From Pseudomonas oryzihabitans (lineage in GTDB: Bacteria > Pseudomonadota > Gammaproteobacteria > Pseudomonadales > Pseudomonadaceae), in the NCBI RefSeq assembly GCF_001518815.1, contig NZ_CP013987.1, positions 4,486,501 through 4,550,500 on the forward strand: 64,000 nt of DNA. Direction: 5' to 3'. The notes under the pieces were generated by a model. That model was given only the letters and a program-made list of their open reading frames with translations, searched no databases and had not been told where the DNA came from. Shown piece after piece: positions 2,107 through 34,330 of this stretch. The translations under genes were made by a program, and so were the position numbers. The first letter of the stretch is position 1. The number at the start of each line of letters is the position of its first letter.

Positions 2107-2129
2107 CGCACCTCTTTGGTGCGCTTTTT
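2106..2129 (+). terminator. Terminator of the DUF4124 pair
   Basis: GCGCACC pairs with GGTGCGC around a five-base loop, then TTTTTG. It starts on the last base of the stop codon and closes the operon before the ntrB promoter region. Confidence 0.88.
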
Positions 2130-2277: not shown

Positions 2278-3342
2278 ATGCCTACCGACGTCATCCACCG
2301 GCTCCTGCTCGACAACCTCACGACCGCGGTCATCCTGCTCGATGCGGAGCTGCGTCTGGAGTACATGAATCCGGCGGCCGAGATGCTGTTGGCCATCAGC
2401 GGCCAGCGCAGCCACGGCCAGTTCATCAGCGAGTTGTTCACCGAGTCGCCCGAGGCCCTGCAGGCGCTGCGGCAGGCGGTCGATCATGCCCACCCCTTCA
2501 CCAAGCGCGAGGCGCTGCTGGTCTCCACCTCGGGCAACAGCCTCACGGTGGACTATGCGGTGACCCCCATCTTGGACCGCCACAACACCCTGCTGCTGCT
2601 GGAAGTCCATCCGCGCGATCGGCTGCTGCGCATCACCAAGGAGGAGGCACAGCTCTCCAAGCAGGAGACCACCAAGCTCCTAGTGCGCGGCCTGGCCCAC
2701 GAGATCAAGAATCCCCTGGGTGGCATCCGCGGCGCAGCCCAGTTACTGGCCCGCGAGCTGCCCGAAGAGTCACTCAAGGACTACACCAACGTCATCATCG
2801 AGGAAGCGGACCGGCTGCGGAATCTGGTCGACCGCATGCTCGGCTCCAACAAGCTGCCGAAGCTTTCCACCACCAACGTCCACGAGGTGCTCGAACGGGT
2901 CTGCAGCCTGGTGGAAGCGGAAAGCCAGGGGCTGATCAATCTGGTACGCGACTACGATCCGAGCATCCCCGACCTGATGATTGATCGGGAGCAGATGATC
3001 CAGGCAGTGCTCAACATCGTGCGCAACGCCATGCAGGCCATCTCCCAGCAGAATGAACTGCGCCTGGGCCGGGTGACCCTGAGAACCCGTACCCTGCGCC
3101 AGTTCACCATCGCCCATCACCGCCATCGCCTAGTGTGCAAGGTGGAGATCATCGACAACGGTCCGGGCATTCCCCAGGACCTGCAGGAAACCATCTTCTA
3201 TCCCATGGTCAGCGGTCGCCCCGACGGCACCGGCCTCGGGCTCGCCATCACCCAGAACATCATCACCCAGCATCAGGGGCTGATCGAGTGTGAAAGCCAT
3301 CCTGGCCACACCGCCTTCAGCATCTTCCTGCCGCTGGAATAA
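2278..3342 (+). CDS. ntrB: Nitrogen regulation sensor kinase NtrB (GlnL)
   Basis: Cytoplasmic histidine kinase/phosphatase that sets the phosphorylation of NtrC according to nitrogen status, via PII protein in this family. 354 residues from the chosen ATG at 2278; an in-frame GTG at 2197 exists but lies upstream of the candidate promoter start, and homologs begin near the LLLDNLTTA segment. Order: N-terminal PAS domain (about 10-120), phosphoacceptor histidine 141 in LAHEIKNPLGG, then the ATPase domain with the N box (NIVRNAMQAI), G1 box (DNGPGIP) and G2 box (GTGLGLAI). No transmembrane segment, as expected. It is followed 12 bases later by ntrC. Confidence 0.96.
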   Translation: MPTDVIHRLLLDNLTTAVILLDAELRLEYMNPAAEMLLAISGQRSHGQFISELFTESPEALQALRQAVDHAHPFTKREALLVSTSGNSLTVDYAVTPILDRHNTLLLLEVHPRDRLLRITKEEAQLSKQETTKLLVRGLAHEIKNPLGGIRGAAQLLARELPEESLKDYTNVIIEEADRLRNLVDRMLGSNKLPKLSTTNVHEVLERVCSLVEAESQGLINLVRDYDPSIPDLMIDREQMIQAVLNIVRNAMQAISQQNELRLGRVTLRTRTLRQFTIAHHRHRLVCKVEIIDNGPGIPQDLQETIFYPMVSGRPDGTGLGLAITQNIITQHQGLIECESHPGHTAFSIFLPLE

Positions 3343-3354
3343 CGAGGAGTACGC

Positions 3355-4785
<1,431 letters not shown>

Positions 4786-4800
4786 GGCTCTCTACCGAGC

Positions 4801-5787
4801 CGTAGGTTGGGCTGAGCGATAGCGAAGCCCAACGCTTTGTTTTGGCTTAGGGTAGGGTTAGGTTGCCCTCACTGATTATCGTGCTTTGCTGATGGCTCTT
4901 GTTTCGCCTGGCCGGCGACTCATTTTTCTTTGCTTGCGGATCGCCGCCCGGTGCAAAGAAAAGTAAGCAAAAGAAAGCACACCCCACGTTTCGGCCCTCC
5001 GTTTCGCTCCGGGTGATTCGCTTCGCTCACCCTTCGGGCCAGCCTGCGGCTGTTACTCCGCTTCGCTACGTTTCCCTCGCCCCGGCGCCGCTCCAGGGGC
5101 ACGGCACGAAGGGGCCTCCTGCCCCTCGCGCCTTGCTCGGCGTCCTGCCTCGCATTTCCCTCCACGACACCTATGCTCGACCTCACTGACGGGGACGGGC
5201 GCCAGCCTGAGAGTTAGGTATTTCCAGTATCTGTAGCGTGGAAAACCGCGCAGCGTTTTCCACTGGCGCGTAACGCCGATCCCTGTGGACAAGGCTTTGC
5301 CGTTGTCCACGCTACGGGTCACAGCTCTTCGTACTTCTTCAACCAACACTTTCAGGCTGGCGAATCGCCCCGTTCAGAAGGGTGAACGCCAGTGTCGTGG
5401 AGTGGGTCGAGCCGCAGGGATGTGGCGAGAGGTCCAGTGAGCCATGGACGGCCCATCTGGACCGACCCCGGAACGGCGCTGGCGTGAGCGAAGCTTAGCG
5501 AAGCGGAGTAACAGCCGCAGGCTGGCCCGAAGGGTGAGCGCAGCGAATTACCCGGAGCGCAGCGGAGGGCCGGATGATCGGGGCAAGCGTTTTTGCTTAC
5601 TTTTGTCCGGGACGCGTAGTCCGGGACGCGCAGCCGCGACTGAAAAAAGTGAGTCGCCCGGGTGGGCGAAACAAGAGGCACCCACAACACTCGGTAAACA
5701 GCCTTAGCACCTAGCACCTAGCACCTAGCTAGCACTGGCTTCACATTGTTGGGCTTCGGCGATGAAGCCGCCTCAACCCAACCTACG
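4801..5787. repeat. Composite non-coding repeat mosaic bounded by inverted REP-like units (copy A)
   Basis: Left border 4801-4833 is a REP-like hairpin unit (CGTAGGTTGGGCT then AAGCCCAAC); right border 5748-5787 is its inverted partner ending CCCAACCTACG. Inside, blocks recur as nested imperfect inverted repeats: a TTTCGCC/GGCGAAA-bounded, poly-T/A-containing block near 4909-4990 and again inverted near 5585-5685, and a central pair of hairpins at 5233-5263 and 5285-5315 with outer GTAGCGTGGA / TCCACGCTAC arms. A closely related copy in reverse orientation lies at 49014-49843. Short open frames in it are not credible genes. It fills most of the 1.3-kb gap after ntrC. Confidence 0.85.
5705..5725 (+). 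repeat. Three tandem copies of TAGCACC
   Basis: Three perfect seven-base copies followed by TAGC and TAGCACT. It lies 118-138 bases before the predicted sRNA start, where an NtrC enhancer would be expected, and each copy contains the GCACC half of the NtrC site. Whether this is a binding array or slippage is unknown. Confidence 0.6.
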
Positions 5788-5815
5788 AATCCTCCAAAAT
5801 CATCCAAGCCAAAAC

Positions 5816-5832
5816 TTGGCACACCTCCTGCA
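5816..5832 (+). promoter_or_regulatory. Candidate sigma-54 promoter of an NrsZ-like sRNA
   Basis: TTGGCACACCTCCTGCA: a perfect TGGCAC -24 box (GG at 5818-5819), exactly ten bases, then GC (5830-5831) in CTGCA. No protein gene follows in this direction before a strong terminator 70 bases later. Predicted transcript start near 5843. Confidence 0.65.
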
Positions 5833-5842
5833 ATATCCCAGG

Positions 5843-5935
5843 TAACTACCCTTTTGGGGACCTCGGTACAGGCAGGCTGGGGAATCCCCTCTTTTCTTCC
5901 TGAGGCCATCACTCACGGTGATGGCCTCTTTTTTT
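5843..5935 (+). ncRNA. nrsZ: Candidate nitrogen-regulated small RNA (NrsZ-like)
   Basis: Inferred from a sigma-54-type promoter immediately upstream and a strong intrinsic terminator at 5902-5935, with no open frame carrying a ribosome site between them. In P. aeruginosa, as I recall, the NtrBC/RpoN-dependent sRNA NrsZ is encoded just after ntrC and before the gene corresponding to the one at 6095-6652 here; the position matches. The predicted transcript is about 93 bases, shorter than the P. aeruginosa RNA as I remember it, and carries small stem-loops (GGGGAATCCCC near 5879) before the terminator. Identity rests on position and signals, not on a sequence comparison. Confidence 0.55.
5902..5935 (+). 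terminator. Strong Rho-independent terminator of the candidate sRNA
   Basis: An eleven-base-pair perfect stem (GAGGCCATCAC with GTGATGGCCTC, loop TCACG) followed by seven T. It acts on the + strand although the nearest upstream protein gene ends 1.1 kb earlier, which argues for a separate transcript. Confidence 0.92.
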
Positions 5936-6094
5936 CGCCCGCGAAAAGCTGCAAACCCCAGGCTAGAGCGCCTCCTGCTCTATAGCCAAGACAAGGGGAC
6001 TGGCAAAGGCAGCCGAAGCGTCAAGGCACCTCGGCGCTCCACCCCGTTCCGCTCTGGTGCAAACAGCCAGCCTCTTGCCTGATAACGGGGCATT

Positions 6095-6652
6095 TCAGGG
6101 CGTCAGCGGGACCTGGACGTGAAGCACCCAGTCCTCGCCTTCTTCCACGATTCGGTCGCTGGCCTGCAGCGCGCCGCCGACGCCTACCAGCAGCACCTTA
6201 AGGTCCTGCCCCTCCTGGCGTACCGTCCAGGAAAAGCTGCCGCCCGGACGCACCACCCGTCCCTGGCGTTCGCCACCGTCCCAGCGGGCCCGGGGCAGAC
6301 GCAGGCTGAGCGCGCCTTCGGGGCGATAGCGTTCGTAGAACAGCGAGCGATCGGCGGTGATCAGCAATTCGAAGCGGCCGGCTTCCTGGCGACTGTCTAC
6401 TCCCAGGATGACCGGGCGGCGGGCCTCGGCCGACCAGGGATCGGGATGGGTGCGCTGGTACACCAGTTGGCCGATGATCATGCCGAACAGGCCGGCACCC
6501 AGGGCCGCCGAGGCCAGCCAGAGCGTCAGGCGCTGGCGCTGGCTGCGCCATTCGGCCTTGAGCAGCTCGGGATCCTCCACCCGCGCCAGTTCGTCCCGGC
6601 GGGCGCGCTGTTCGCGCAACAGCCAGTCGAACAGCCGGCGCCAGAGGCTCAT
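6095..6652 (-). CDS. Conserved membrane-anchored protein of unknown function
   Basis: A 185-residue protein convergent with ntrC and the candidate sRNA. The start is taken at 6652 (MSLWRRLFDWLLREQRARR); the frame is open further upstream, but that part is antisense to trmL. Seen: a basic amphipathic N-terminus, one transmembrane segment at about residues 46-66 (LWLASAALGAGLFGMIIGQLVY), then a mostly beta-type domain of about 115 residues, probably periplasmic. Pseudomonas genomes carry a hypothetical gene at this place between ntrC and trmL; I recognise no domain and give no function. Its start lies about 70 bases from the trmL start, so the two are divergent. Confidence 0.8.
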   Translation of the reverse strand: MSLWRRLFDWLLREQRARRDELARVEDPELLKAEWRSQRQRLTLWLASAALGAGLFGMIIGQLVYQRTHPDPWSAEARRPVILGVDSRQEAGRFELLITADRSLFYERYRPEGALSLRLPRARWDGGERQGRVVRPGGSFSWTVRQEGQDLKVLLVGVGGALQASDRIVEEGEDWVLHVQVPLTP

Positions 6653-6724: not shown

Positions 6725-7192
6725 ATGTTCGACATCATCCTCTACCAACCGGAAATTCCGCCCAATACCGGCAACGTCATTCGCCTGTGCGCCATCACTG
6801 GCTGCCGCCTGCATCTGATCGAGCCGCTGGGCTTCGCGCTGGACGACAAGAAATTGCGCCGCGCCGGCTTGGACTATCACGAGTGGTCCAGCGTGCGGAC
6901 CCATGCCAGCCTCGCGGCCTGTATAGCAGATTTGCAGCCGCCGCGACTGCTGGCCTTCACCACCAAGGCCAGCCACCCCTTCACCGAGATCGCCTATGCG
7001 CCGGGCGACGCCCTGCTGTTCGGCCCGGAAAGTCGTGGTCTGCCGGCCGAGGTGCTGGATTCCCTGCCGCCCGAACAACGGCTGCGCCTGCCCATGTTGC
7101 CCAACCGGCGCAGCCTCAACCTGTCCAACACCGTGGCCGTGGCCGTCTATGAAGGCTGGCGCCAGCTGGGCTTCGCTGCACCGCCTGGCTGA
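6725..7192 (+). CDS. trmL: tRNA (cytidine(34)/uridine(34)-2'-O)-methyltransferase TrmL
   Basis: SPOUT-class methyltransferase that 2'-O-methylates the wobble base of tRNA-Leu isoacceptors using SAM. 155 residues, the usual length. Seen: N-terminal LYQPEIPPNTGNVIR (conserved N-x2-R region), LIEPLGF, the FGPESRGLP loop and the C-terminal knot motif RSLNLSNTVAVAVYE. The start at 6725 matches the family N-terminus; the longer open frame upstream is antisense to the preceding gene. In P. aeruginosa secB follows this gene, as I recall; here a molybdopterin oxidoreductase does, so local synteny is broken. Confidence 0.95.
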   Translation: MFDIILYQPEIPPNTGNVIRLCAITGCRLHLIEPLGFALDDKKLRRAGLDYHEWSSVRTHASLAACIADLQPPRLLAFTTKASHPFTEIAYAPGDALLFGPESRGLPAEVLDSLPPEQRLRLPMLPNRRSLNLSNTVAVAVYEGWRQLGFAAPPG

Positions 7193-34149: not shown

Positions 34150-34330
34150 TCACTCTCTGGTGTGTGCGCCAGTCGGTCATGTCCCCGAGCCGATAAGCAA
34201 CACCCCGGGGGTTGCTCGTAAGACTGGTGTGCATGTCCGCTACGGCGGAAAGCCTAAAGGTCTACGACTTCTCCCACCTTGAACCAAGGGTTCAAGGGCT
34301 ACACCGGCAGCGGCATTCCGGAGAGCTCAT
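34150..34330 (+). ncRNA. ssrS: 6S RNA
   Basis: Regulator that binds sigma-70 RNA polymerase as a promoter mimic in stationary phase. Located between zapA and the 5-formyl-THF cyclo-ligase gene, its conserved place. The ends form a closing stem: CTCTCTGG (34153-34160) with CCGGAGAG (34318-34325). The internal sequence is the typical long irregular hairpin with a central bubble. Boundaries are estimated from the stem and from the -10 box, to within a few bases. The downstream gene is probably cotranscribed, as in E. coli. Confidence 0.88.

What the first reader, a model, noticed from the sequence alone, without database searches (positions are those of the whole stretch)
5816..5935. NrsZ-like sigma-54-driven sRNA after ntrC
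A TGGCAC-N5-CTGCA promoter with exact ten-base GG/GC spacing is followed 70 bases later by an eleven-base-pair terminator with seven T, and no protein gene lies between. Established knowledge, from memory: P. aeruginosa has the NtrBC/RpoN-dependent sRNA NrsZ in this same place. Inference: this is its homolog, with a shorter transcript of about 93 bases.
Basis: partly seen in the sequence, partly recalled or inferred. Interest (0 to 1): 0.75.

Follow-up and report, generated by a model that had tools for sequence, protein, structure and literature searches.

The report
One-module NrsZ small RNA after ntrC
A short regulatory RNA of the NrsZ type, with a promoter for the nitrogen-related sigma factor RpoN, sits after ntrC in a Pseudomonas of the oryzihabitans group and has one copy of a hairpin that P. 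aeruginosa carries three times.

Summary
Rfam NrsZ (RF02695) matches there, E = 2e-7, but only model positions 13-46 of 236 and 35.2 bits against a gathering score of 76.9, so a scan at that threshold misses it. P. aeruginosa PA7 has three modules; all 13 sampled genomes of the window's genus have one. The module occurs in 163 of 198 Pseudomonadaceae genomes, 1-5 matches each; outside the family, 5 weak hits in a class-wide sample of 274. The stem shows compensatory changes. NtrC control is inferred by orthology: no NtrC-like box with up to 3 mismatches lies between 4488 and 6024, and in several genera NrsZ lies far from ntrC. Targets are unknown; the one candidate tested failed conservation. 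A single-module variant of a known sRNA: solid, modest interest.

The parts
5817..5832 (+). sigma-54 (-24/-12) promoter TGGCACACCTCCTGCA
   Evidence: a promoter match (loose pattern) was found in 41 of 45 family loci, 32-38 nt before the module start in 37 of these 41
5843..5935 (+). predicted NrsZ transcript, about 93 nt (start = 12 nt after the C of the -12 GC)
   Evidence: inferred from promoter and terminator; the same rule puts the PA7 start one base before the Rfam NrsZ match
5856..5889 (+). NrsZ module hairpin, 12 pairs with a 2-nt bulge
   Evidence: Rfam RF02695 positions 13-46, 35.2 bits, E 2e-7; model R1 69.5 bits, R1 having been built from modules that include this one; compensatory changes across the family
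5868..5875 (+). apical loop ACAGGCAG, presumed seed for base pairing
   Evidence: ACAGGCAG in 70 of 78 modules, AGGCAG in 78 of 78; named as the NrsZ conserved motif in a passage of PMC9308961
5890..5900 (+). U-rich tract after the module (UCUUUUCUUCC)
   Evidence: role (Hfq binding or processing) not tested
5902..5935 (+). intrinsic terminator: 12-bp stem, loop of 3, seven T
   Evidence: two-sided changes in 4 of 12 pairs among 12 distinct rows of the genus
3355..4785 (+). ntrC (response regulator, sigma-54 activator)
   Evidence: Pfam Response_reg, Sigma54_activat, HTH_8
2278..3342 (+). ntrB (PAS, HisKA, HATPase_c)
6095..6652 (-). convergent gene downstream, no Pfam match; occupies the place of the convergent gene seen after NrsZ in other genera
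   Evidence: likeness to those genes by eye only
6725..7192 (+). SpoU-family RNA methyltransferase (trmL-like, name recalled)
   Evidence: PF00588, E 1.6e-31

Best explanation
This is the NrsZ small RNA of a Pseudomonas of the oryzihabitans/luteola group, in a single-module form. Sigma-54 RNA polymerase, most likely activated by NtrC~P under nitrogen limitation, starts at about 5843 and the transcript ends at the terminator at about 5935. The RNA carries one hairpin that presents ACAGGCAG in its apical loop and most likely acts by base pairing of that loop with mRNA leaders. Shown: promoter, module, terminator, conservation, covariation, homology to NrsZ. Inferred: transcription itself, NtrC as activator, base pairing. 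Unknown: targets. Because the first 60 nt (one module) of P. aeruginosa NrsZ are reported to be sufficient for function, the one-module RNA should work as made.
For: Rfam NrsZ match at the module. PA7 positive control: 259 bits over the full model, three modules, same promoter spacing. Module in 163 of 198 family genomes; 13 of 13 of the genus with one match. Promoter plus module in 127 of 198. ACAGGCAG in 70 of 78 modules. Stem covariation: 7 of 12 pairs with two-sided changes, 96.7% of cells paired, 0 of 500 shuffles as high on either (that alignment was fitted to the model, which leans that way). Terminator and module together in the genus: 10 cells with two-sided change, all in the terminator, 0 of 500 shuffles as high. 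ntrC upstream in the same orientation in 24 of 45 loci. All 26 module-bearing genomes in which I sought NtrC by search had a close match, E at or below 1e-200 (6, 20). Literature passages: first 60 nt functional, RpoN/NtrBC dependence (PMC8395346, PMC9308961).
Against: Rfam gathering score not reached (35.2 against 76.9). No TGCACC-N5-GGTGCA-like box with up to 3 mismatches between 4488 and 6024, although two 2-mismatch boxes precede ntrB at 2107 and 2135. No expression data. In several genera NrsZ is not beside ntrC. Ten genomes have NtrC but no module hit. On the unfitted 26-row alignment stem covariation is weak: 63 of 500 shuffles reach the pairing, 18 of 500 the two-sided pairs. In the genus alignment 126 of 500 shuffles reach the number of two-sided pairs.
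Confidence: 0.9

Rival explanations
1. The sRNA is real and sigma-54 driven, but another sigma-54 activator than NtrC drives it in this genus, so that it reports another signal.
For: No NtrC-like box with up to 3 mismatches between 4488 and 6024; poor conservation upstream of the promoter in the ten aligned genomes of the genus; in 8 genomes NrsZ and ntrC sit on one contig but far apart.
Against: A close NtrC match in all 26 module-bearing genomes searched, while 10 of the 20 module-less genomes searched have none (four of those ten are under 90% complete). Strong NtrC-like boxes upstream of NrsZ in some other genera: 9 of 41 loci at or below 0.02 against mononucleotide shuffles, several of them related. 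NtrBC dependence reported in P. aeruginosa.
Confidence: 0.15
2. The hairpin is only a terminator or attenuator region at the end of ntrC or before a downstream gene, not a free sRNA.
For: Ends in an intrinsic terminator.
Against: It has its own conserved promoter 1,032 nt after ntrC, the next gene is convergent, and the module is identical in 13 of 13 genomes of the genus.
Confidence: 0.03
3. The stretch encodes a small protein.
For: A 79-aa TTG-started frame runs through on +.
Against: The frame is broken by indels of 1, 2 or 7 nt in 8 of 9 aligned relatives. Conservation follows the stem and loop, the terminator stem changes by compensation, and the spacer between module and terminator changes length within the genus.
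Confidence: 0.02

Closest known systems
NrsZ of Pseudomonas aeruginosa (Rfam RF02695; Wenner et al. 2014, not held; seen through passages of reviews PMC8395346 and PMC9308961)
   Same: sigma-54 promoter, place after ntrC, hairpin with ACAGGCAG loop and U-rich tail, same promoter-to-module distance
   Different: one module, not three; about 93 nt, not about 226; separate strong terminator; 1,032 nt from ntrC (428 in PA7); rhlA as target not tested here
CrcZ-type sRNAs (CbrAB/RpoN; layout recalled)
   Same: sigma-54-driven sRNA beside a two-component regulator gene (recalled)
   Different: works by sequestering a regulatory protein (passage of PMC5703892); its binding repeats were not looked for here, and the Rfam scans list no CrcZ match
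Rfam suhB/mmgR (RF00519)
   Same: hairpin plus terminator layout; 24.2 bits at 5841-5942
   Different: below its gathering score of 41; the match rests mostly on the terminator end

Membership tests
NrsZ (RF02695) | module hairpin with ACAGGCAG loop | tested here: met
NrsZ (RF02695) | reaches the Rfam gathering score (76.9 bits, 236-position three-module model) | tested here: not met
   35.2 bits, positions 13-46 only; the 4 loci of the genus given to cmscan also fail, 35.2-46.2 bits
NrsZ (RF02695) | three similar modules, about 226 nt | tested here: not met
   one match in the own genome and in 13 of 13 genomes of the genus, own included
NrsZ (RF02695) | sigma-54 promoter just upstream | tested here: met
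NrsZ (RF02695) | position downstream of ntrC | tested here: met
   1,032 nt between ntrC stop and promoter
NrsZ (RF02695) | activation by NtrBC under nitrogen limitation | tested here: inconclusive
   sequence only: no NtrC-like box with up to 3 mismatches in 4488-6024; no expression data
NrsZ (RF02695) | processing into short RNAs | not testable with these tools
   needs RNA
NrsZ (RF02695) | activates rhlA by base pairing | not tested
   presence of rhlA in this genome was not examined

The most novel reading that the evidence does not exclude
The single module is the ancestral NrsZ: a ready-made minimal riboregulator that needs no processing. The three-to-five-module NrsZ of the P. aeruginosa lineage and of other multi-module genera arose later, more than once, by tandem duplication, perhaps to raise dose. 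The gene travels independently of ntrC, so its conserved role is a family-wide nitrogen regulon that is not tied to rhamnolipids.
Probability: 0.45. Interest if true: 0.45.

Novelty: new variant of a known kind. Interest (0 to 1): 0.3.

Why it matters
It gives a natural one-module NrsZ that the Rfam model misses at its threshold, so NrsZ can be annotated across Pseudomonadaceae with a single-module model. The near-fixed loop across 15 genera suggests that the targets are not specific to rhamnolipid producers, and a one-module species is a clean place to look for them.

Tried and rejected
A first guess at the Rfam accession from memory (RF02675) was wrong; it is Ysr141, and that hit is irrelevant. 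Targets: the reverse complement CCTGCCTGTAC was sought in the own genome with up to 1 mismatch: 106 hits against 73 for the reversed control. I looked at the context of 50 of the 106 (30 loci, 20 stretches; one of the 50 is NrsZ itself). The only exact hit besides NrsZ lies inside an open frame. A site just after the stop of the gene before livH (LivH named by recall from its sequence) looked attractive, but its 10-base match CCTGCCTGTA is present in 5 of 13 genomes of the genus, the own included: it is changed in 4 that were printed and not found in the loci of the other 4. Rejected. A site near glnK (named by recall) lies upstream of an NtrC-like box and hence probably outside the glnK mRNA; rejected. 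NtrC boxes: consensus scan near chance in the window (68 found, 55.8 expected, 3 of 100 shuffles as many) and none with up to 3 mismatches in the spacer. Small-protein and attenuator readings rejected. Of the five weak module hits outside the family, two contain ACAGGCAG, and none has a sigma-54-like match in the 130 nt searched. Structure prediction and PDB searches were not used: the object is an RNA.

Full report
What is there. The sequence has an exact sigma-54 promoter at 5817-5832 and a 12-bp terminator with seven T at 5902-5935. The strand 5842-5935 folds at -40 kcal/mol, z = -4.1.

Identity. Over the whole window at gathering thresholds Rfam reports only 6S RNA. At an E-value threshold on 5600-6110, RF02695 (NrsZ) matches 5856-5889 with 35.2 bits, E = 2e-7, model positions 13-46 of 236, and heads the 8 matches. 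P. aeruginosa PA7, fetched by pattern, scores 259 bits over the full model and has three ACAGGCAG modules; the same promoter-to-start rule puts its start one base before the Rfam match. Of the five other loci given to that scan, a P. nitroreducens locus scores 132.4 bits and four loci of the window's genus score 35.2-46.2. Passages of two reviews describe NrsZ as about 226 nt, from the ntrC-PA5126 region, NtrBC and RpoN dependent, with the first 60 nt functional and conserved motif ACAGGCAG (PMC8395346 and PMC9308961). The original paper is not held.

Organism. The pattern scan lists P. oryzihabitans, P. luteola, P. duriflava, P. asuensis and P. rhizoryzae among loci with one module.

Conservation. 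A module covariance model (R1, 26 distinct modules, this one included) finds the module in 163 of 198 Pseudomonadaceae genomes. In a class-wide sample 7 of 274 genomes ring: the window's genome, one family member, and five others at 20.8-25.3 bits, E 2e-4 to 0.008; two of these five contain ACAGGCAG but none has a sigma-54-like match nearby, and I take them for chance. Promoter and module together, as an exact pattern, occur in 127 of 198 family genomes, with the reversed control at 0 in the rows listed. I then examined 45 loci with 78 modules from 15 genera, a choice of mine. A promoter match to a loose pattern within 110 nt was found in 41 of 45; the distance to the module start is 32-38 nt in 37 of these and 48-59 nt in the other 4. 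The four without a match are L103-L106; three of them show near-misses by eye. ACAGGCAG is in 70 of 78 modules, AGGCAG in 78 of 78. On the model-fitted alignment 7 of 12 pairs show two-sided changes; 0 of 500 shuffles reach the pairing, the two-sided counts or the covariation score, and 3 of 500 the number of pair types. On the unfitted 26-row alignment the signal is weak: 63 of 500 reach the pairing, 18 of 500 the number of two-sided pairs, 56 of 500 the covariation score. Within the genus the module helix does not vary, while the terminator stem shows two-sided changes at 4 of 12 pairs; there 0 of 500 shuffles reach the covariation score but 126 of 500 the number of two-sided pairs.

Module number. 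Counting whole-genome matches by eye: the window's genus has one in 13 of 13 genomes; genus g8 (which holds PA7) has 1, 2, 3, 4, 5 in 1, 1, 9, 13, 1 of 25; g11 has 3, 4, 5 in 4, 11, 3 of 18; g14 has 1, 2, 3, 4, 5 in 14, 8, 6, 3, 1 of 32. The other positive genomes have one, except G024 and G052 with two. These are matches in the genome, not proven tandem copies; tandem order was seen in the loci. On an NtrC tree of 55 rows (23 of 51 inner branches starred, 17 open), parsimony on the 45 rows with a module, rooted on the g18 side, gives a single-module root and 6 changes. The node joining the window's genus to g8 is ambiguous, so one module as the ancestral state is likely but not proven.

Place. 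ntrC lies upstream in the same orientation in 24 of 45 loci; several of the other stretches were too short to tell (L077, L078, L104-L106). In the window the spacer is 1,032 nt; among the five loci of the genus in that call it is 72-1,032 nt, and among nine named congeners with ntrC in the stretch 72-1,058 nt. In G019 and G138 (g8) NrsZ is within 2 kb of ntrC but convergent. In eight genomes both lie on one contig but about 80 kb to 2 Mb apart in contig coordinates (G190, G146, G051, G223, G053, G043, G023, G050). So the place after ntrC is usual but not defining. Of 20 module-less genomes examined (of 35), 10 have no close NtrC match, four of these ten being under 90% complete; the 26 module-bearing genomes searched all have one.

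Regulation and function. Sigma-54 control rests on the conserved promoter. NtrC control rests on orthology: no NtrC-like box with up to 3 mismatches lies between 4488 and 6024, although two 2-mismatch boxes (2107, 2135) precede ntrB (such boxes are near chance in number over the window, 68 against 55.8). In other genera 9 of 41 upstream regions have a box at or below 0.02 against mononucleotide shuffles, but several of these loci are related. The likely action is base pairing by the exposed loop. I could not name a target: the best-looking candidate is conserved in 5 of 13 genomes of the genus only. Whether this genome has rhlA was not tested.

Novelty. Of the 23 held papers with NrsZ I saw passages of ten, one of which has the name only in its references; none of these passages mentions a one-module NrsZ. 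Searches for P. oryzihabitans with small RNA (9 papers listed; titles and abstract starts seen) and for RF02695 (0 papers) listed nothing on it. The 2014 paper may discuss copy number; I could not read it. I therefore call it a new variant of a known kind.

Noticed in passing
window 34151-34328 (+): 6S / SsrS RNA, 109.9 bits, the only Rfam match in the window at gathering threshold.
   Followed up: no
window 4992-5098 and 5466-5572: Inverted repeat with 107-nt arms, 89% complementary, in the ntrC-NrsZ spacer; the spacer is 72-104 nt in three luteola-type relatives, so the long spacer may be later insertion of repeat DNA.
   Followed up: partly
window 2107-2123 and 2135-2151: Two NtrC-like boxes with 2 mismatches just upstream of ntrB.
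   Followed up: no
L049 1604-1747: In P. aeruginosa PA7 the Rfam sRNA P33 (158.3 bits) lies between ntrC and NrsZ; no such match at gathering threshold in the window.
   Followed up: no
G024 contig C8:62316-62398 and C1:734009-734054: One genome of genus g13 has two NrsZ-like matches, one about 2.4 kb past ntrC and one on another contig: a possible duplication or relocation intermediate.
   Followed up: no
L066, L067, L068, L072, L075, L090, L093, L099, L103: The convergent neighbour ends about 41-42 nt after the module start, that is at the module's end, so the module hairpin with its U tract may itself be the terminator there.
   Followed up: partly
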